Positions 49,800-64,000 of a stretch of DNA of 64,000 nucleotides are shown here, in pieces (position 1 is the first letter of the stretch; every line of letters starts with the position of its first letter). The position numbers and the translations under genes are program-made. The stretch is from NCBI GenBank assembly GCA_022821545.1, contig JAJEDJ010000050.1, positions 1-64,000 of the forward strand. Reading direction: 5' to 3'. This DNA comes from Caldilineaceae bacterium (GTDB lineage: Bacteria > Chloroflexota > Anaerolineae > Caldilineales > Caldilineaceae). The notes under the pieces are model-generated. The model was not told where the DNA came from. It did not search any database and worked only from the letters and a program-made list of their open reading frames with translations.

Positions 49800-50669
49800 A
49801 TGAAAAACGGAATCGATTTGGTCGTCCTCGATATGGACGGCACGATCTATGGCAGACAGTTCGCGGGCGGCATTACTGTGAGGGTGCGGCGTGCGATTGA
49901 AGCTGTGCAGGAGGCGGGGACGCCGGTCACCATTGCCACAGGGCGAATCTTTGACTTTGTACGTGCCGTGGCGCCGGAGTTGGGCATAACGCTTCCGGTG
50001 ATCACGGCGCAGGGCGCGGTGATCGGCGATCCGGGCAGCGGAGAGGTACTGTACGAGTCGCTGATTGGGGAGGATGACGCCTGCAACGTGGCGGCCTGGG
50101 CTGACGGTGAGGAGCGCACGACGGTCTTCTATCTGAACAGTTCCGCGGGGCGTACGCGGCTGGTACAGAGGGGGCCTGGCGGAGGGAACGGCAGCGGCGG
50201 CTGGGAGGGTTGGGACAGCTCTACATATGATCACTGGTTCGGCAGCCCCAGAGAGATGCACGACAGGCTCTTAGACGTCTTGTCTGTGCCGGGCGTCCGT
50301 CCCCTGAAATTCATAACGGTGAACGACCCCGCGCTGGAACCGGATCAGACCGGCGCCCTGCAGAGGCGGTTTGGCGGAGGTATCCTTGTGAGCCGTTCGC
50401 ACCAGTACCTTGTGGAGGGAACGGCTCCGACGGCGAACAAGGGTCACGCTCTTTTGAGGTTGACGGAGCGGCTTGGAATCGACCCCAAACGCGTCCTGGC
50501 CATCGGCGACAACGAAAATGACATCCCAATGTTGCGGGAAGCCGGTCTGGCCGTGTGTATGGGCCAGGCGCCCGCGGTCGTACGGGCGGAGGCAGATTGG
50601 ATCGCGCCGACGCTGGATGAGGATGGCGCCGCGGTTGCGCTGGAACGGTTTGTGCTTTCCTGGAAGTAG
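49800..50669 (+). CDS. HAD-superfamily hydrolase (Cof-type)
   Basis: A 289-residue HAD phosphatase with a C2-type cap. Motif I is VVLDMDGTIYG (Asp9/Asp11 region), motif II PVTIATGR, and motif IV RVLAIGDNENDIPMLREAGL; the Lys motif is NKGHALLRL. Cof-type enzymes remove phosphate from sugar phosphates, pyridoxal phosphate or flavin-type substrates. The cap region contains a glycine-rich segment (GPGGGNGSGGWEGW) not typical of the family. Its ATG follows AAAAAAGAAAG. It is 156 bp after prmC and may be its own transcript. Confidence 0.87.
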   Translation: MKNGIDLVVLDMDGTIYGRQFAGGITVRVRRAIEAVQEAGTPVTIATGRIFDFVRAVAPELGITLPVITAQGAVIGDPGSGEVLYESLIGEDDACNVAAWADGEERTTVFYLNSSAGRTRLVQRGPGGGNGSGGWEGWDSSTYDHWFGSPREMHDRLLDVLSVPGVRPLKFITVNDPALEPDQTGALQRRFGGGILVSRSHQYLVEGTAPTANKGHALLRLTERLGIDPKRVLAIGDNENDIPMLREAGLAVCMGQAPAVVRAEADWIAPTLDEDGAAVALERFVLSWK

Positions 50670-50739
50670 GATTTGGTCGCTTCTCCCGCCTTGCACGAAT
50701 TTCCGGGGCTGTCGGGCCGAAACCAACCTGTCACGAGAA

Positions 50740-50769
50740 TTGGGATATTACCGGGTTTGCTGCTATACT
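50740..50769 (+). promoter_or_regulatory. candidate promoter of the carbohydrate ABC operon
   Basis: TTGGGA (50740-50745), 18-bp spacer, TATACT (50764-50769, five of six). It lies in the 361-bp gap between the HAD gene and the solute-binding gene, where no gene is supported, giving a leader of about 255 nt. The rest of this gap shows no recognised feature. Confidence 0.4.
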
Positions 50770-51030
50770 CTTGCCGAATCAGGGTCAAGATAGCAGACCT
50801 CGTGAATTCCCCCTCGCAACTGCACCCGCTGCCGTCAAGCATGTTGGGCGGGACCCTTCTGCAAAGATGCCTTTTTCCTATCCGAGCGCCTTACCCGTGC
50901 TCGACCGGTCCTAGTCAGATACCCTGCGGCCCGCGGGCGTTTTACAGCGCCGGCATGCAGCCGCCCCGGTTGGAATTGTCATTAGCCGTTGACACCTTAT
51001 CATTCAAAACGCATAAGGAGAGTGCATACC

Positions 51031-52446
51031 ATGCAAGAGAAGAAAAGTGTAAACCGACGCCAGTTCCTGCGGATGAGTTCTGCCGCAGGCGCGACTGCAT
51101 TTCTGGCGGCCTGTGCGGCGCCGGCCGCGCCGGCGGCCGACAGTTCGGGCGACGGCGAGATGATGGCCGAAATGATCTCGCTCCGTTACCAGTCGCGAGA
51201 ACCGGAGCGGGCGGCAGGCATTGCGCAGCTCTGGAAGGAGTTCTATCCGCAATTCCAGGAAGCCAACCCCAACATCGAGGTTGAATTCCTGCCGGATCCC
51301 GGGGGCGCCAACCGCCGTGAAGGCGCTCTGAGCGCGATGGTCGCCGGCAATGCGCCGGACCTGACAGAGTGGTGCTGCTCCAGTTCCACCTTTTTCATGC
51401 AGAAGGGCGAGACGCTCAGTTTGCAGCCCTATATCGACCGTGATGCCGAAGAGGTAAACCTGGACGACTACTATGAGGCCCAATTCGATCCCTGGACGTT
51501 GGATGGAGACATTCACCTGATGCCCCGCTTCACCGGCACGCAGGTGATCTACTTCAACAAGGACATGTTCGACGCCAGGGGTGTCGACTACCCGCCCCAG
51601 GAGTGGGGCGCCTGGAATTGGGAGGACTACACCAACCTCATGCGCCAGTTTGCCGATGCAGACGAGCAGCCGCAGATCTGGGGTACCTCAAACTACGGCC
51701 TGAACGCCAACTGGCTCTCCCAGTACTGGATTCGGGGCTTCGGCGCCAACATGGTGGACCAGGAAGACAATACCCATTGCGGTCTGGATTCACCCGAAGC
51801 CTATGACGCCCTGACATGGATGCGCAGCATCGTCCACGATGAACCGCTCTTCGCTTACGGCGCCGACATCGGCATGGGCGTAGTCGAGCTCTTCCTGGGC
51901 CAGCGCATCGCCCTGATGGAGATCGGCCCCTGGAATCTGGGCGTGCAGGCAGACGGCGCAACCTTCCGCTGGGACGTCGCTCCGATGCCGGACGGCCCGG
52001 CAGGACACACGACCCATCAGTCAGTCGACGGCACGATGGTCTGGAAGGGAACAGCCTATCCGGACGAGTCGTGGGAGCTGATGAAGTGGCTGACCAGCCC
52101 TCTCTACGGCCGCCTGTACATCACCTGGGCGCAGAAGCAGCCTTCGCGCAAGAGCCTGCTGCCCGAGTATGCGGAGATTATGCGAGCCGCCAATGAAAAG
52201 TTCGAAGATATCAACCTCGACGTGTTTACCAATTCAGTAGGCCAGGACATTGGCGGGCCGGAAGAGATGTTCGCCGAGGACCTGATTACGAAGAATCAGA
52301 TTCTGAAGCCTGCCTTCGACCTGGTGATGTTGCTCGGCGAGCAGCCGGTTGAACTGATCGTAGATCACGCCGACGTTGCAACCCGCTTCAATCGCGGCGA
52401 GATAAACATCGAAGATCTGGGCGCAGAGCTGGATAAGCTCAGCTAG
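51031..52446 (+). CDS. carbohydrate ABC transporter substrate-binding protein (Tat-type lipoprotein)
   Basis: A 471-residue family-1 solute-binding protein. The N-terminus NRRQFLRMSSAAGATAFLAA followed by Cys is both a twin-arginine signal (RRQFLR) and a lipobox (FLAAC), so it should be exported folded and lipid-anchored. The binding-protein fold shows FNKDMFDARGVDYPP and WELMKWLTSPLYGRLY. ATG at 51031 follows AAGGAG. It is the first gene of an importer operon with two permeases after a hairpin. The ATPase is not encoded here and is probably shared, as is common for sugar importers. Sugar unknown. Confidence 0.93.
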   Translation: MQEKKSVNRRQFLRMSSAAGATAFLAACAAPAAPAADSSGDGEMMAEMISLRYQSREPERAAGIAQLWKEFYPQFQEANPNIEVEFLPDPGGANRREGALSAMVAGNAPDLTEWCCSSSTFFMQKGETLSLQPYIDRDAEEVNLDDYYEAQFDPWTLDGDIHLMPRFTGTQVIYFNKDMFDARGVDYPPQEWGAWNWEDYTNLMRQFADADEQPQIWGTSNYGLNANWLSQYWIRGFGANMVDQEDNTHCGLDSPEAYDALTWMRSIVHDEPLFAYGADIGMGVVELFLGQRIALMEIGPWNLGVQADGATFRWDVAPMPDGPAGHTTHQSVDGTMVWKGTAYPDESWELMKWLTSPLYGRLYITWAQKQPSRKSLLPEYAEIMRAANEKFEDINLDVFTNSVGQDIGGPEEMFAEDLITKNQILKPAFDLVMLLGEQPVELIVDHADVATRFNRGEINIEDLGAELDKLS

Positions 52447-52461
52447 TTCGTCGACCTGAAG

Positions 52462-52489
52462 GGCGCGGGAGGTCTCCTCCCGCGCCTTT
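52462..52489 (+). terminator. intergenic hairpin between solute-binding gene and permease
   Basis: Perfect 11-bp arms GGCGCGGGAGG and CCTCCCGCGCC with a TCT loop, followed by TTT. It lies 16 bp after the solute-binding protein stop. Such a hairpin commonly partly ends transcription or protects the upstream message, so that the binding protein is made in excess over the permeases. Confidence 0.8.
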
Positions 52490-52585
52490 CGGTCCGGGAA
52501 CGAACTGCCGCGAACGACAGAGATTGAGCCGGCGGCGAGGACTGTTTCAGGCCGCCGGCAACCTGCATGCTAACCGGGGATTCAG

Positions 52586-53545
52586 ATGGCCAGCATCAGC
52601 GAAACCCAGACACAGAAGGGTCTTGCCTCTTGGTTCAGGCGGGACGGGAAGCCAATGAAGCCGTCCACGCGCGAAGCGTGGTATGGATATCTGCTCGCGT
52701 CGCCGTGGATCATCGGGTTCATCGTCTTTACGGTTGGGCCGATGCTGGCTTCGCTGATTATTGGAATGTACCGCACCGACTTTCTGACTGAGACGACATT
52801 CGTCGGTTTCAAGTGGTATCAGAACGTGCTGCGCGACAGTCTCGTGCGTAAAGCATTGATTAATACTGCGATCTTCAGCTTCACGGTTGTGCCTATCAAT
52901 ACTGCGCTGGCGCTGCTGATCGCGGTGATGCTGAATCAGGGCATCCGGCTCCAGAGTTTCTGGCGCACCGTATATTATCTGCCGTCGGTCGTGTCCGGCG
53001 TGGCCGTTTCGTTGCTGTGGAAGTGGCTTTACCAGCCGGATATCGGTCTGTTGAATTCAATTCTGGGTCCGCTTCTGCGTCCCTATGGCATCGACCCGCC
53101 GCGCTGGATCTTCAGCACGGAGTGGGCGCTGCCGTCTTTGATCATCATGGCGTTCTGGGGCGCGGGCGGCGCAATGCTGATCTACCTGGCCGGGCTGCGG
53201 GGGATCCCGACGTCACTCTATGAGGCCGCCGAGATCGACGGCGCCAGTTCCTTCCGCCGTTTCTTCGCGGTTACGCTGCCATTGCTCACGCCGACAATCT
53301 TCTTCAACGTTGTCCTCAACATCATCATTTCATGGCAGGTATTTACGCAGGCCATGGTTATGACGCGCGGCGGTCCCAACAACGCCACTCTCACCATGGT
53401 CTTGCACATTTACAATACCGGCTTTCAGAATTTCTATTTCGGCTACGCGTCCGCCCAGGCCTGGTTCCTTTTCATCATCGTACTCATTTTCGTCATTCTC
53501 GCTTTGCGGAGCGCGTCATCCTGGGTGCATTACGAGCGGGTCTAG
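52586..53545 (+). CDS. carbohydrate ABC transporter permease (MalF/UgpA type)
   Basis: A 319-residue inner-membrane permease with about six transmembrane segments (first at residues 34-58, YGYLLASPWIIGFIVFTVGP). The conserved EAA loop EAAEIDGASSFRRFFAVTLP docks the ATPase. It has the usual FRTVYYLPSVVSGVAVSLLW-like segment of the first permease of CUT1-type sugar importers. It lies 140 bp after the solute-binding gene and 39 bp before the second permease. Forms a heterodimer with the product of the next gene. Confidence 0.92.
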   Translation: MASISETQTQKGLASWFRRDGKPMKPSTREAWYGYLLASPWIIGFIVFTVGPMLASLIIGMYRTDFLTETTFVGFKWYQNVLRDSLVRKALINTAIFSFTVVPINTALALLIAVMLNQGIRLQSFWRTVYYLPSVVSGVAVSLLWKWLYQPDIGLLNSILGPLLRPYGIDPPRWIFSTEWALPSLIIMAFWGAGGAMLIYLAGLRGIPTSLYEAAEIDGASSFRRFFAVTLPLLTPTIFFNVVLNIIISWQVFTQAMVMTRGGPNNATLTMVLHIYNTGFQNFYFGYASAQAWFLFIIVLIFVILALRSASSWVHYERV

Positions 53546-53584
53546 CCGGCGAATCCGGCAATCTCTGAGGCAGGAGCTTCTAGC

Positions 53585-54472
53585 ATGGCAACCACGGTCC
53601 AGACGCGAGCAGCCGTTCAGCCGGCCGAGCGGCACGACAACAGCAAGCTGACTGAGGGGATCTATCGCACTCTCCTGTACGGCGCGGTCGTTTTGGGAGG
53701 CATCGTTTTTGCTATCCCCTTTTACTGGATGATGCGCACTTCGGTCATGCCTACAACGCAGGTCTATCTTTTCCCGCCGGAGTGGTGGCCTGAACGGTTT
53801 GAATGGCATCACTTTAAGACGCCTTTTGCGGTCTTTCCTTTTGCCAAGTTCTTTTTGAACAGTACCTTTATCGCCGCCGGCAGTGCAGTTGGGGCGGCGC
53901 TTTCCGCCTCCGTGGTTGGATTCAGCTTTGCGCGCCTGCGTTTTCCACTCCGAGATGTCATGTTTGTGGTTGTCCTTGCCACCATGATTCTGCCCGAACA
54001 CGTCCGGCTTGTTCCGACCTACCTGCTTTTCGTCCAGTTGGACTGGATCGGGACTTACAGGCCTCTCATCATTCCGAACTGGTTTGCGCCCGCCTTCTAT
54101 GTGTTTCTGATGCGCCAGTTCTTTATGACGATCCCGAGAGAGCTGGATGATTCCGCAATGATTGACGGCTGCAATCCCATCGGACTGTTCTGGCGCATTC
54201 ATATGCCGCTGAGCCTGCCGGCGCTCGGCGTGGTCATCATTTTCATGGTCACGAACCAGTGGAATGATTTCCTCTACCCGCTCATCTACATCCAGGGCGT
54301 GCCGAACTACACTGTCGCGCTCGGTTTGCGCCTGTTTGAAGGCCATATGACAAACAATATGCAGGCGCTGATGGCGGCGTCGATTCTCGGTGTCTTGCCG
54401 ACGATCATTCTGTTTTTCTTCGCCCAACGCCACTTCGTTCAGGGAATCGTCATCTCCGGCGTAAAGGGGTAG
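53585..54472 (+). CDS. carbohydrate ABC transporter permease (MalG/UgpE type)
   Basis: A 295-residue second permease of the CUT1 type. First transmembrane segment about residues 30-47 (LLYGAVVLGGIVFAIPFYWM), then a periplasmic loop and five more. Its EAA-like loop is ELDDSAMIDGCNPIGLFWRI, with the consensus EAA changed to ELD, tolerated in the family. NSTFIAAGSAVGAALSASV is the typical core-domain start. The final ISGVKG is the common ending. Its stop codon meets the next gene region, so it is co-transcribed with the dioxygenase-like gene. Confidence 0.92.
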   Translation: MATTVQTRAAVQPAERHDNSKLTEGIYRTLLYGAVVLGGIVFAIPFYWMMRTSVMPTTQVYLFPPEWWPERFEWHHFKTPFAVFPFAKFFLNSTFIAAGSAVGAALSASVVGFSFARLRFPLRDVMFVVVLATMILPEHVRLVPTYLLFVQLDWIGTYRPLIIPNWFAPAFYVFLMRQFFMTIPRELDDSAMIDGCNPIGLFWRIHMPLSLPALGVVIIFMVTNQWNDFLYPLIYIQGVPNYTVALGLRLFEGHMTNNMQALMAASILGVLPTIILFFFAQRHFVQGIVISGVKG

Positions 54473-54555
54473 TGCAAGTTAGATTTCGGCCTGCTTTCAC
54501 TTCGCTTGCAGGCCGCCGGGCAGTGGCCCGCTTCACAACGGGAGGTACCGCGACT

Positions 54556-55446
54556 GTGCGCACGAAAGAAGAAGACAAGGAACTCGATTACCTCTTCGAC
54601 TTGCAAGGTTATCTCGTCCTGAAGGGCGCTATCTCCAAGGATGACCTGGCGGAGATGAACGGCTGGGTGGACGACCATTGGGAGATCGTCGAAAATCCGC
54701 CGCTCCTGGGCAATGCGCAACTCGACGTAAATCCTGGCGAAGAGTACTGGATAGGCAACGTTGAGGTCCACAGTTACGGCCCCGACGACGGCGTGAACTT
54801 CCAGAACATTGTCGAAGGGGGCGCAGTCTTTGAGCGCCTTATCGATCATCCGGCCTGGCATCCTCTGGCTGAACGCTATGTCAATCCGGTCAACGGCCTC
54901 TCAATTCACGAGAACCTGCTTAACGTGCGCGGCCCGGGGGGATTCCTGTACATTCACTGCGGCGGCCACACGCCTCTCTTCTATCTGACCTTCCGCCAGC
55001 ACAATACGGGCGAATGGATGGTTGGGCAGATCAACGTGTTGATGGCGCTGGAGGATATCGGTCCCGGTGATGGGCCTACCGTCCTGGTCCCGGGCAGTCA
55101 CAAGGCGACGGAGATTCACCCGCGGCTGGAGCTGGACGGCAAAGGCATCGTCGCGGCTCACCATGAGCGGGAGGCCGCGGGCACAGCGCTGGCGATGAAG
55201 GAGATCTATCTGGAAGCCGGAGACGTGGTCTTCTTCACCGACGCCATCACGCACGGATCCGCTGAGCGCACCAATCCCGGCTACCGGCGCTCGGTCATCT
55301 TCCGCTACTCGCCCCGCTACCTGCGTACGCGGTTCAACTACCAGTTGTCATCTGAACTGTCCGCGCGTCTGACGCCCCGTCGCCGCGAGATTCTCGAGCC
55401 CGTCGCGCCCCGTGGAAGCATGTTGACCCCGGCAGGCAGCGGCTAA
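54556..55446 (+). CDS. phytanoyl-CoA dioxygenase-like (PhyH) Fe/2-oxoglutarate oxygenase
   Basis: A 296-residue member of the PhyH superfamily. The family opening is YLFDLQGYLVLKGAISKDDL. The usual iron H-x-D pair is not obvious near GFLYIHCGGHTP, where residues HCGGH occur, but PGSHKATE and the second-half His (FTDAITHGSAERTNPGYRR, with the oxoglutarate Arg) are clear. It is placed as an Fe(II)/2-oxoglutarate hydroxylase, with the proximal ligand uncertain. GTG at 54556 with GGGAGG is preferred to the GTG at 54472. It lies behind the sugar permease and before a radical SAM gene, so it may act on the imported compound. Confidence 0.85.
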   Translation: MRTKEEDKELDYLFDLQGYLVLKGAISKDDLAEMNGWVDDHWEIVENPPLLGNAQLDVNPGEEYWIGNVEVHSYGPDDGVNFQNIVEGGAVFERLIDHPAWHPLAERYVNPVNGLSIHENLLNVRGPGGFLYIHCGGHTPLFYLTFRQHNTGEWMVGQINVLMALEDIGPGDGPTVLVPGSHKATEIHPRLELDGKGIVAAHHEREAAGTALAMKEIYLEAGDVVFFTDAITHGSAERTNPGYRRSVIFRYSPRYLRTRFNYQLSSELSARLTPRRREILEPVAPRGSMLTPAGSG

Positions 55447-55488
55447 CCGCTGTTGCGCCTCCGCCCACGGCCCTCGGCAGCTTGCGCA

Positions 55489-56985
55489 ATGGATATCCTC
55501 TACATTCATCCGGCCAAACAGGAAGTTGAAGCGCGTTATGACAAGTTTCGCTCCTGTCCGCCCTATCCTTTTATTCCGGTGGGCGTCGTCGGCTTCGTCA
55601 ACATGCTGCGGGCTGAAGGGTATCAGGTCCGCGGTCTGAACCTCCCGGTTGAACTTCTGCAGCGCCCCACTTTCAGTCTGCGCCAGTGGCTGAAAAGCCA
55701 GCGCATCCTGCCGAAGCTCGTTCTGATCGACCTTCACTGGTACGAGCACGCCTTCGGCGCAATGGCGGTGGCCCAAGCGGTCAAGGAGACACTGCCAGAT
55801 ACGACGGTGGTGGTCGGCGGACTGACGACTTCGTATTACGGCGAAGAGATTCTTGCCGGCTTTCCCTACGTCGACTACGCGATCCGCGGCGACGCCGAGG
55901 AACCGCTGCTTCAGCTGGCTGCTCGGGTGGTCGGCAAAGGTTCGTCACAGGTCGACGATATACCCAACCTGATACGGCGTCCCGGTAGCGGACGGAAACC
56001 GGAGCAGAATCTGGGCTTCTATTTCGCCGACTCGGCCATGCTGGACAGCCTCGACTTTGTGTCGATGGACTGGCTTTCGAATCAGCGGGCCTATGCTGCG
56101 CTCCAGTACTCCGGCGCGGGACTCATGACGCTGCGCAAGCCGAAACTGCTCAGCCACTGGCTCACGGTTGGCCGCGGCTGCGTCTTTGACTGCATCTACT
56201 GCGGCGGCGGCAAGGAGTCCCACAGCGAACTCGCCGGTCGCAACGGTTATGTTATGCGTTCACCTGAGGCGGTGGTTGAGGACGTGGCCCGCCTGGCAAA
56301 GGAGGGATTCCAGCAGGTCAATCTGTCGCTGGACATCGCCACCTATCCGGCCAAATGGTGGCGCGCCTTCTTTGCGCAACTCCGGAACGACGAAATACGC
56401 ATCGGCATCTATAACGAGTTTTTCCAGCTTCCTTCGAATGACTTCATTGACGAGTTATGCAGGACGGCCGATCTTTCTCACACAGAGGTGGCGATTTCTC
56501 CTCTTTCGGGTGACGAGGAGGTGCGGCGGCGCAACGGAAAGTTCTACACCAATGAACGCTTTTTGCGGATGCTGGAGACGCTAAAGAAGTATGAAGTGCC
56601 AATCTTTATCTATTTCAGCCTGAATCTGCCGGGGGAAACGCCCCAAACCTTTAAGAAGACGCTCAACCTGGCGGACCGGATCGGCAAGACCTACCCTCAT
56701 CACCTGTTGCGAATGCTTAATCCCTGCCATACGCTCGACCCTATGTCGCCGATGAGCCGTCAACCCGACAGCTTCGGCATGAATGTTCAGTTCACGACCT
56801 TCCAGGATTATTACGACTACTGCAAGGGGACCGGTTGGGAGCCTCGGAGGGTGGTGAGAGGCCAGCACCGCGGATTCGAAATGGCTGGCCGGCCGACGCG
56901 TATCGTTGAACAGATGGCACAGATCTGGGACGTATTCGCCCAGGCCCAGCAGTTTCGTTGCTTCCCCGTTCCCCGCGGCTGGTAG
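55489..56985 (+). CDS. B12-binding-domain radical SAM protein
   Basis: A 498-residue radical SAM enzyme with an N-terminal cobalamin-binding-like domain (residues about 1-140; DILYIHPAKQ, GFVNMLRAEGYQVRGLNLP, VVVGGLTTSYYGEEIL). The iron-sulfur cysteines are C231-V-F-D-C235-I-Y-C238, the CxxxCxxC motif. The TIM barrel follows (VNLSLDIATYPAKWW, IFIYFSLNLPGETPQTF). Members often methylate unactivated carbon or rearrange sugars and cofactors. The cobalamin-binding DxHxxG pattern is not clearly present (a DLHWYE occurs), so it may not bind B12 in the usual way. Last gene of the importer cluster. Confidence 0.87.
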   Translation: MDILYIHPAKQEVEARYDKFRSCPPYPFIPVGVVGFVNMLRAEGYQVRGLNLPVELLQRPTFSLRQWLKSQRILPKLVLIDLHWYEHAFGAMAVAQAVKETLPDTTVVVGGLTTSYYGEEILAGFPYVDYAIRGDAEEPLLQLAARVVGKGSSQVDDIPNLIRRPGSGRKPEQNLGFYFADSAMLDSLDFVSMDWLSNQRAYAALQYSGAGLMTLRKPKLLSHWLTVGRGCVFDCIYCGGGKESHSELAGRNGYVMRSPEAVVEDVARLAKEGFQQVNLSLDIATYPAKWWRAFFAQLRNDEIRIGIYNEFFQLPSNDFIDELCRTADLSHTEVAISPLSGDEEVRRRNGKFYTNERFLRMLETLKKYEVPIFIYFSLNLPGETPQTFKKTLNLADRIGKTYPHHLLRMLNPCHTLDPMSPMSRQPDSFGMNVQFTTFQDYYDYCKGTGWEPRRVVRGQHRGFEMAGRPTRIVEQMAQIWDVFAQAQQFRCFPVPRGW

Positions 56986-57157
56986 GGATTCCTACAGGTG
57001 AATTCGCAAGCCGCGTCGCCGCCGGTCTGTATCCTCTCAGGACTCTCAGCAAAGCCGTTTCTTCGTTCAGACGATGCCGTTACGTTTGCAGCCAGAGTTG
57101 CGGCGGCCTGCTATTTCGGTGACAATGAGGCTGTCAATTTTTTTGGCGCCCGTATCG

Positions 57158-57171
57158 ACTGACCGGTCAGT
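57158..57171. promoter_or_regulatory. perfect palindromic operator upstream of TetR gene
   Basis: ACTGACCGGTCAGT is a perfect 14-bp palindrome, 29 bp before the TetR start codon. TGACCGGTCA-type sites are typical for TetR-family repressors. It could autoregulate this gene and, because the men genes follow on the same strand, may govern them too. Seen directly; the binding protein is inferred. Confidence 0.7.
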
Positions 57172-57199
57172 TTGGGCCGGCTTACCCTCTGCTTTTGCG

Positions 57200-57799
57200 A
57201 TGACCGAAGAGCCCATCCGCAGCCCTGAATCGACAAGGGAGCGCATCCTGGATGCCGCCCTCAGTGTTTTCAGCCACAAGGGCTACCATGACGCGCGCCT
57301 AGACGAGATCGTCGCCGAATCCAAAACATCGAAAGGCTCGATCTATTTCCACTTTCCCAATAAGGAGCGGCTCTTCTTGGCGCTTGTGGAGAAGTTCGCG
57401 GACCTGGTCGAACGTCGAGTCACGGAAGCAATTGAGCGGCAGACGAGCCCGATGGCGAAGGTCGAGGCCGCGCTGGAGGCCTGCCTGGAGGCATTTGGAC
57501 GGTACCGGCGCCCGGCCAAGGTGATGCTGGTCCAGGCCACTGGATTGGGTACCGTCTTTGAGGAAAAACGGCTTGAAATCAACGAGCGTTTCGCCAATCT
57601 GATCCGAATCTATCTGAATGAGGCCGTCGCCGCCGGTGAAATCGATGAGGTTGACACCGACGTAATCGCTCATGCGTGGCTGGGCAGTATCTACTACCTG
57701 ACGATTCGCTGGGTCTACAGCGGAGAACCGGAACCTTCACGCATTGTCGGCACGCTGGTGCCGATGCTTCTGCAGAGCGTGAACTACACGAGGGACTGA
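57200..57799 (+). CDS. TetR-family transcriptional regulator
   Basis: A 199-residue TetR-type repressor. The N-terminal helix-turn-helix (residues about 15-60) reads RERILDAALSVFSHKGYHDA and then DEIVAESKTSKGSIYFHFPNKERLF, the standard pattern. The remaining helices form the ligand-binding and dimer domain, with the hydrophobic core GSIYYLTIRWVYSG. ATG at 57200 gives the usual short start; 42 upstream residues are not used. It lies 74 bp before menF on the same strand. The ligand is not evident; fatty acyl-CoA or quinone-like ligands are common in similar regulators, so this is guesswork. Confidence 0.88.
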   Translation: MTEEPIRSPESTRERILDAALSVFSHKGYHDARLDEIVAESKTSKGSIYFHFPNKERLFLALVEKFADLVERRVTEAIERQTSPMAKVEAALEACLEAFGRYRRPAKVMLVQATGLGTVFEEKRLEINERFANLIRIYLNEAVAAGEIDEVDTDVIAHAWLGSIYYLTIRWVYSGEPEPSRIVGTLVPMLLQSVNYTRD

Positions 57800-63621: not shown

Positions 63622-64000
63622 TCACTCAGCAACAGATCGAATTTTTCAACGAAAACGGATACCTGCGATACGGCCGCGTATTGGACATGGCCGAAGTCGA
63701 GGCGTTGCGTACGGGCCTGGACAATGTCATCGCTATCGAAGAGGCCGGCGGCGATGAATCGGAAATAGAGTTCAAGTATGGACACCGTCGGGGAGCATCG
63801 ATGGGGGGTAACGCGGAAGAGCATCAGCCGCGCCATATCGTTCAATACGTGAATATGTTCAAGAGGGAGCCTATATATGAGCGTCTGCTCCACCACCCCG
63901 TGATCTCGGGCGCGGCCTGCGCCCTGTTGAACACGCCGCGCGTGCGGCTCTGGCACGATCAGATCATCTCCAAGCCACCGGAGGAGAACCGTCACTTTCA
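63618..64000 (+). CDS. phytanoyl-CoA dioxygenase-like protein (3' end outside window)
   Basis: The first 127 residues of a PhyH-superfamily Fe(II)/2-oxoglutarate oxygenase. ITQQQIEFFNENGYLRYGRV and DMAEVEALRTGLDNVIAIEE are the usual N-terminal helices, and VRLWHDQIISKPPEEN contains the iron-binding H-x-D. The ATG overlaps the menE stop (ATGA), so it is translationally coupled to the menaquinone operon. Whether it modifies a quinone or a lipid is unknown. The gene runs off the right edge. Confidence 0.88.
   Translation, partial: MITQQQIEFFNENGYLRYGRVLDMAEVEALRTGLDNVIAIEEAGGDESEIEFKYGHRRGASMGGNAEEHQPRHIVQYVNMFKREPIYERLLHHPVISGAACALLNTPRVRLWHDQIISKPPEENRHF

What the first reader, a model, noticed from the sequence alone, without database searches (positions are those of the whole stretch)
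51031..56985. Sugar importer linked to a PhyH oxygenase and a B12-type radical SAM enzyme
Seen: Tat-lipoprotein receptor, intergenic hairpin, two permeases, PhyH-like enzyme and a radical SAM protein with an N-terminal cobalamin-like domain, all on one strand with short gaps. Known: neither oxygenase nor radical SAM genes are usual in sugar importer operons. Inference: the imported compound is modified by hydroxylation and a radical reaction, for example a methylated or unusual sugar.
Basis: partly seen in the sequence, partly recalled or inferred. Interest (0 to 1): 0.5.

Follow-up and report, generated by a model that had tools for sequence, protein, structure and literature searches.

The report
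Sugar importer with paired radical enzymes
In a group of bacteria related to sponge-derived genomes, a sugar importer travels through evolution with an uncharacterised B12-type radical enzyme, and in one genus also with an iron oxygenase relative whose usual metal-binding acid is missing, which suggests unusual chemistry on the imported compound.

Summary
Window 51031-56985 holds a Tat-lipoprotein sugar receptor, a conserved hairpin, two CUT1-type permeases, a PhyH-family protein and a B12-binding/radical SAM protein. It lies in a Caldilineaceae (Chloroflexota) genome; close relatives are largely sponge-derived. The five-gene order is intact on one contig in 13 of 17 genomes of the genus, split between contigs in 1, decayed in 1, and absent from the same site in 2.

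Across 46 family genomes the receptor and the radical SAM gene occur together in 21, radical SAM alone in 1, receptor alone in 0. In four genera they share one cluster; in three of those, sugar dehydrogenase or isomerase genes lie between them instead of this PhyH. So importer plus radical SAM is the old core and the oxygenase an exchangeable partner: three genera pair the importer with three different PhyH subfamilies.

Two things are unusual. The radical SAM protein belongs to an unnamed sister subfamily of TIGR04190 (227 bits, cut-off 500). The PhyH protein lacks the HxD acid: it has HCG (HxGG in 36 of 36), with an invariant Asp four residues before the distal His. A halogenase-like site or a relocated carboxylate would fit. 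No substrate or reaction is shown.

The parts
51031..52446 (+). Tat-type lipoprotein, CUT1 sugar-binding protein (SBP)
   Evidence: PF01547 E 2.3e-30; nearest solved chains are sugar/oligosaccharide-binding proteins and Lmo0181; median dN/dS 0.045
52462..52486 (+). conserved 11-bp stem-loop between SBP and first permease, no T-run
   Evidence: 98.3% of cells paired in 11 sequences, 3 of 11 pairs with two-sided changes
52586..53545 (+). sugar ABC permease 1 (UgpA-like)
   Evidence: PF00528 2.8e-15, best NCBIfam NF007852 UgpA, below its cut-off
53585..54472 (+). sugar ABC permease 2 (UgpE-like)
   Evidence: PF00528 1.2e-13, best NCBIfam NF008210 UgpE, below its cut-off
54556..55446 (+). PhyH-family protein without the HxD acid (H134-C135-G136-G137; D229; H233; R244)
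   Evidence: PF05721 51.4 bits; motif positions; median dN/dS 0.053
54955..54963 (+). codons of H134-C135-G136, in the place of HxD
   Evidence: aligned to 100 PhyH loci of the same genome, 94 of which have D at the third position
55240..55254 (+). codons D229 to H233: acid four residues before the distal His
   Evidence: both invariant in 36 of 36 subfamily sequences
55489..56985 (+). B12-binding domain plus radical SAM protein, sister subfamily of TIGR04190
   Evidence: PF02310, PF04055; TIGR04190 227 bits, cut-off 500; AF2 model pLDDT 84; median dN/dS 0.057
55729..55749 (+). DLHWYEH motif in the B12-binding domain; D-L-H-W and the last H shared with TIGR04190 members
   Evidence: invariant in the 15 sequences
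56179..56202 (+). CxxxCxxC radical SAM cluster motif
   Evidence: the three Cys are invariant in the 17 sequences

Best explanation
A genus-level cassette for taking up a carbohydrate-like compound and changing it inside the cell by radical chemistry. The SBP and two permeases (with an ATPase encoded elsewhere) import the compound. The B12-type radical SAM enzyme is the old, conserved partner and acts on the imported compound or a product of it. In related genera the same importer and radical SAM gene sit with Gfo/Idh/MocA dehydrogenases and xylose-isomerase-like enzymes that resemble 3-keto-glycoside/levoglucosan pathway enzymes. In this genus a PhyH-family iron enzyme takes their place. Shown: gene content, conserved order, joint gain and loss, purifying selection. 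Inferred: that the substrate is a sugar or glycoside, that the enzymes act on the imported compound, and the kind of reaction.
For: Co-occurrence in 46 family genomes: SBP orthologue (57% identity or more) in 21, radical SAM orthologue (59% or more) in 22, both in 21 (Fisher p 3e-12, not corrected for kinship). Linked in 4 genera: g1 (this one), and L075, L076, L077. Where unlinked (genus g2) both are still kept in 4 of 4 genomes. In G020 the SBP and permeases are gone and the radical SAM gene is a fragment, while PhyH is intact; in G015 and G018 the whole cassette is absent between HAD and TetR, which are about 240 bp apart. Relatives' neighbours: Gfo/Idh and xylose-isomerase-type enzymes; GfoB best hit levoglucosan dehydrogenase, 403 bits of a 650 cut-off; IsoB matches 2-hydroxy-3-keto-glucal hydratase 8ro4, E 1e-39. 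dN/dS 0.036-0.057 across the five genes, against 0.125-0.17 for HAD, MenF, MenD.
Against: No ligand, activity or transcript data. SBP similarity to solved proteins is low and spans several sugars. Linked genes are lost together trivially, so much of the co-occurrence within g1 counts as few events. IsoB is present in 42 of 46 family genomes, in this one at C27, so its closeness to the radical SAM gene is weak evidence. G036 has the radical SAM gene without the SBP orthologue. In g2 the radical SAM gene stands alone. The two more distant relatives L083 and L084 have other neighbours. Low dN/dS does not mark the cassette by itself: TetR, which stays when the cassette is missing, also has 0.052.
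Confidence: 0.55

Rival explanations
1. The PhyH protein is a halogenase: the 2-His iron site with HxG leaves room for chloride or bromide, and the imported compound is halogenated.
For: HxG replaces HxD, invariant in 36 of 36, with distal His and Arg kept; HxG/A is the mark used to pick Fe/2OG halogenases (PMC11186838, passages), and SyrB2 has a chloride pocket in place of the carboxylate (PMC4019311, passages). Close relatives are sponge-derived genomes, and halogenases are said to be enriched in sponge symbionts (PMC6306507, passage).
Against: No match to the chlorinating-enzyme model TIGR01762 at E 1e-3; an invariant D229 lies four residues before the distal His and could restore a carboxylate ligand; the same HxGG subfamily occurs in family members whose habitat I did not check; the structure prediction failed (pLDDT 34).
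Confidence: 0.15
2. The PhyH protein is an oxygenase with a rearranged facial triad: the carboxylate has moved from HxD to the position four residues before the distal His.
For: D229 invariant in 36 of 36. Of the same genome's 100 PhyH loci, those that by my reading of the raw sequences lack HxD (7: L228 HCG, L184 HSG, L226 HGG, L218 HVV, L201 HMG, L224 HRG, L215 HHH) have an acid there in 6 of 7, against 5 of 93 of the rest. Automatic columns alone: 4 of 6 against 7 of 94, Fisher p 0.001; the intermediate count tested, 6 of 8 against 5 of 92, p 1e-5.
Against: The re-reading is by hand and was made after the pattern was seen; several of these paralogues fall near each other in the tree, so they are not independent; no structure.
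Confidence: 0.4
3. The five genes are neighbours of convenience: the PhyH gene is one of about a hundred, landed there once in the genus ancestor and has nothing to do with the importer.
For: PhyH is intact in G020 where the importer is lost; none of this PhyH in L075, L076, L078; 100 PhyH matches listed in this genome; 6 of 30 PhyH loci lie near a sugar-ABC gene, which may be no more than the genome's wealth of sugar transporters gives.
Against: The same importer is directly followed by a different, canonical (HQD) PhyH in genus g2 (L122, L123, L127), and the L077 cluster holds a third PhyH right after the radical SAM gene; low dN/dS of PhyH; whole cassette absent as a unit in 2 of 17.
Confidence: 0.3
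4. The radical SAM enzyme is a sugar diol dehydratase of the AprD4 sort, with a B12-like domain that need not bind B12.
For: VIA-align ranks AprD4 with paromamine first (Z 24.4, rmsd 3.3, 399 aligned); sugar enzymes are its neighbours in relatives.
Against: TsrM (Z 24.1) and MgmA (23.7) are tied with it and Foldseek puts TsrM first; PF02310 passes its cut-off.
Confidence: 0.2

Closest known systems
TIGR04190 family (Ta0216-type B12-binding/radical SAM proteins, function unknown)
   Same: Same two domains and the D-L-H-W-x-x-H motif; 43 invariant columns over 8 window-type and 7 TIGR04190-type sequences; TIGR04190-type genes also sit beside GfoA-IsoB-GfoB in two genomes of one genus (L151, L152)
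   Different: Scores 227 bits against a 500 cut-off, true members 629-634; about 26% identical; linked to a sugar importer
AprD4, TsrM, MgmA, CysS, OxsB (solved radical SAM enzymes with a B12-type domain)
   Same: Whole-length fold match, Z 22-24
   Different: 11-16% sequence identity; no shared substrate evidence
PhyH family Fe(II)/2-oxoglutarate oxygenases (PF05721)
   Same: Family score, distal His and Arg
   Different: HCG instead of HxD, invariant Asp before the distal His
Fe(II)/2-oxoglutarate halogenases (SyrB2, WelO5, BesD, AdaV)
   Same: HxG/A in place of HxD
   Different: No match to the chlorinating-enzyme model; an acid sits near the distal His
Levoglucosan / 3-keto-glycoside pathway clusters
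   Same: Relatives' clusters hold a levoglucosan-dehydrogenase-like protein and a 2-hydroxy-3-keto-glucal-hydratase-like protein with the same importer (L077)
   Different: These genes are not in the window's cluster
CUT1 sugar ABC importers (UgpA/UgpE, MalF/MalG type)
   Same: SBP plus two permeases, shared ATPase presumed
   Different: Two radical enzymes follow

Membership tests
TIGR04190 | score over the curated cut-off of 500 bits | tested here: not met
   227.2 bits
B12-binding radical SAM proteins (PF02310 + PF04055) | both domains over Pfam cut-offs | tested here: met
   38.5 and 66.8 bits
B12-binding radical SAM proteins (PF02310 + PF04055) | CxxxCxxC cluster motif | tested here: met
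   C231, C235, C238 invariant
B12-binding radical SAM proteins (PF02310 + PF04055) | binds cobalamin | not testable with these tools
   needs purified protein
AprD4-type radical SAM diol dehydratase | closest fold and residues of the paromamine site | tested here: inconclusive
   Z 24.4, tied with TsrM 24.1; site residues not compared
PhyH oxygenases (PF05721) | family score over cut-off | tested here: met
   51.4 bits against 22
PhyH oxygenases (PF05721) | HxD/E...H iron-binding triad in its usual place | tested here: not met
   HCG; no conserved HxD/E anywhere in the subfamily
Fe/2OG halogenases | HxG/A in place of HxD | tested here: met
   HxGG in 36 of 36
Fe/2OG halogenases | match to chlorinating-enzyme model TIGR01762 | tested here: not met
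   no hit at E 1e-3
Fe/2OG halogenases | halide bound at iron, halogenated product | not testable with these tools
   needs assay
CUT1 sugar ABC importer | SBP_bac_1 receptor and two BPD_transp_1 permeases | tested here: met
CUT1 sugar ABC importer | ATPase gene in the same cluster (often absent in CUT1 systems, recalled) | tested here: not met
   none among the genes 49800-57799

The most novel reading that the evidence does not exclude
A sugar importer feeds two unusual metalloenzymes: a cobalamin-type radical SAM enzyme of an uncharacterised family (signature DLHW) used in carbohydrate uptake and breakdown, and a PhyH-family iron enzyme whose metal-binding carboxylate has either been dropped for a halide (an importer-linked halogenase) or moved to four residues before the distal histidine, a rearranged facial triad that recurs in other PhyH proteins of the same genome.
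Probability: 0.35. Interest if true: 0.72.

Novelty: new variant of a known kind. Interest (0 to 1): 0.5.

Why it matters
B12-type radical SAM enzymes are known mainly from biosynthesis (recalled). A member tied to a sugar importer and to sugar dehydrogenase/isomerase genes would put this chemistry into uptake and breakdown of sugars by uncultured bacteria, and would give TIGR04190 and its sister subfamily a first substrate class to test. The PhyH question is sharp and cheap to test: one mutant and one structure decide whether the iron site is a halogenase site or a triad with a moved acid.

Tried and rejected
AlphaFold2 on the PhyH protein with an alignment of 13 close sequences failed (pLDDT 34); no fold search was run on it. 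Rfam found nothing in the window. The promoter and terminator scan is no better than shuffles. TIGR04190 gives no paper in the full-text library. A paper search for cobalamin-dependent radical SAM with sugar ABC transporters gave no paper holding the radical SAM term among the 12 listed of 95. The idea that TetR belongs to the unit was dropped: TetR stays next to HAD in G015 and G018, which lack the cassette. The idea that the relatives' isomerase B marks the pathway was weakened: it is in 42 of 46 family genomes. A first reading that six PhyH loci lack HxD from alignment columns alone was corrected by reading raw sequences: L200 has HWD and returns to the HxD group, L218 and L226 leave it. 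In the 18-row alignment MAFFT put H149 in the HxD place; phmmer put H138 there; neither is followed by an acid at +2, so the loss of HxD does not hang on one alignment. The first seed profile for the PhyH loci contained wrong-strand frames and was rebuilt.
Full report
What is there. The window is one contig stretch of an unnamed 4.87 Mb genome. Named relatives of the radical SAM gene at 90-96% identity are Caldilineaceae MAGs; I take several of them to be sponge-derived from their bin names (recalled). Reading + strand: prfA, prmC, HAD phosphatase, then SBP, permease, permease, PhyH, radical SAM, then TetR, menF, menD, menB (the names prfA, prmC and Men are mine, from the sequences). Two starts need moving inward (PhyH 54556, radical SAM 55489).

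The hairpin. The stem at 52462-52486 is kept in 11 of 11 genus sequences with 3 of 11 pairs changed on both sides. It has no T-run and is not listed as a terminator. From general knowledge (recalled), a stem between a binding-protein gene and its permease genes is usual and sets their relative expression; I regard it as ordinary.

Conservation of the five-gene order. Genus g1 holds 17 genomes including this one. From the coordinates: 13 of 17 have SBP, PhyH and radical SAM on one contig in the same spacing; G009 has SBP on one contig and PhyH plus radical SAM on another; G020 keeps PhyH (83%), has lost SBP and permeases, and has only a C-terminal piece of the radical SAM gene; G015 and G018 have none of the five at this site, where HAD and TetR lie about 240 bp apart. 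Their PhyH matches at 45-48% identity elsewhere in the genome are other paralogues. The cassette therefore comes and goes as a block at a fixed site, and TetR is outside it.

Outside the genus. In L075, L076 and L077, which are genomes G024, G043 and G021 by matching coordinates, the same SBP-permease-permease set stands upstream of the radical SAM gene, but the genes between are a sugar-isomerase-like protein, a Gfo/Idh/MocA dehydrogenase and/or a small protein without Pfam match. L078 (G036) has two dehydrogenases and two isomerase-like genes before the radical SAM gene and a more distant importer on the other strand. In genus g2 the importer and the radical SAM gene lie on different contigs, yet both are present in 4 of 4. 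Over all 46 family genomes: both 21, radical SAM only 1 (G036), SBP only 0, neither 24 (Fisher 3e-12, which ignores kinship; the fragment in G020 is counted as absent). In 400 genomes spread over the phylum only this genome matched at E 1e-60, so the subfamily is close to family-specific in that sample.

What the neighbours say. The relatives' dehydrogenase B scores 403 bits on the levoglucosan dehydrogenase model (cut-off 650, so a relative and not a member), and isomerase B matches the solved 2-hydroxy-3-keto-glucal hydratase 8ro4 at E 1e-39. These are enzyme types of 3-keto-glycoside cleavage (PMC10628242 and PMC13273386, abstracts in the listing). Caution: isomerase B is in 42 of 46 family genomes, so it is near-core. 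Dehydrogenase A at E 1e-70 is in 10 of 46, none in g1 or g2. TIGR04190-type radical SAM genes (about 26% identical) in G038 and G039, one genus, also stand next to dehydrogenase A, isomerase B and dehydrogenase B, but in g6 they have other neighbours. I take this as moderate support for a carbohydrate role.

The radical SAM protein. It scores 227 bits on TIGR04190, cut-off 500, while the distant paralogues L145 and L152 score 634 and 629. An alignment of 8 window-type and 7 TIGR04190-type sequences has 43 invariant columns, among them D81-L82-H83-W84 and H87 in the B12-binding domain and the three cluster cysteines. It is best called an unnamed sister subfamily. The AF2 model is good (pLDDT 84, pTM 0.87). 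Foldseek's first hit is TsrM; VIA-align gives AprD4 24.4, TsrM 24.1, MgmA 23.7, CysS 23.5, OxsB 22.9, of which the first four are tied. AprD4 is a radical SAM diol dehydratase acting on a pseudodisaccharide (PMC5461906, passages). Whether this protein binds B12 cannot be told here.

The PhyH protein. I aligned the 100 PhyH loci that one search listed for this genome (the list ends at exactly 100, so it may be cut). The column of the iron-binding Asp holds D in 94 of 100; this protein has G in H-C-G. In the subfamily (this protein and 35 homologues from this family and three other Chloroflexota families; L085 is the same gene as L045, L032 is the window's own copy and L184 is its paralogue) H134, G136, G137, D229, H233 and R244 are invariant in 36 of 36, and no HxD/E is conserved. 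So the loss is old, and the gene is under purifying selection (median dN/dS 0.053 over 11 pairs). HxG/A is the mark of Fe/2OG halogenases. Against a simple halogenase reading, D229 sits four residues before the distal His. Among the 100 loci, by hand reading, 7 lack HxD and 6 of these 7 have an acid at that place, against 5 of 93 others (automatic columns: 4 of 6 against 7 of 94, p 0.001). Several are neighbours in the tree, and the hand reading came after the pattern was seen. I judge a moved carboxylate more likely than a halogenase; both are open. My paper searches on halogenase motifs and on PhyH did not test whether such a moved carboxylate is already in print.

PhyH as partner. In g2 the importer is directly followed by a canonical HQD PhyH (L122, L123, L127, three of the four g2 genomes looked at), and in L077 a third, also HQD, follows the radical SAM gene. 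Three genera, three subfamilies. A similar PhyH wealth is in print for Poribacteria, over 1.9% of genes (PMC3909097, section 13 read); the main text of the sponge Chloroflexi paper PMC6306507 does not mention PhyH (find), though it reports many sugar ABC importers in Caldilineae.

Verdict. Real, conserved, and a coherent unit at the level of importer plus radical SAM. The oxygenase is a swapped-in partner with an unusual iron site. The reaction and substrate remain inference.

Noticed in passing
whole genome G000; e.g. window 63645-64000 and beyond: About 100 PhyH-family genes in one 4.87 Mb genome, a level that I found in print only for Poribacteria (PMC3909097); only 1 of 14 control genomes has any match.
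   Followed up: partly
L184, L201, L218, L224, L226 (G000 stretches): Other PhyH paralogues that lack HxD also carry an acid four residues before the distal His (F-[TV]-[DE]-x3-H), as if the metal-binding carboxylate had moved.
   Followed up: partly
window 51031-55443 against L062 and L063: Synonymous divergence from the two nearest genomes is 0.5-1.1 for SBP, permeases and PhyH but 0.25-0.46 for HAD, radical SAM, TetR and Men genes, which suggests a recombined segment that stops before the radical SAM gene.
   Followed up: no
L151, L152 (G038, G039): TIGR04190-type radical SAM genes directly upstream of the levoglucosan-dehydrogenase-like/isomerase-like gene set; a lead to the function of TIGR04190.
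   Followed up: partly
L147, L148, L150 (genus g6): TIGR04190-type radical SAM genes between genes that look by eye like xanthine/CO-dehydrogenase-type subunits; not tested with models.
   Followed up: no
L083 and L084: The most distant window-type radical SAM genes (49% and 45%) have other neighbours: phosphodiesterase and MmgE/PrpD in L083, arginine-deiminase-like in L084; the L084 copy is frameshifted.
   Followed up: partly
L079-L082 (genus g2): The radical SAM gene stands alone upstream of a gene that looks by eye like hflX.
   Followed up: no
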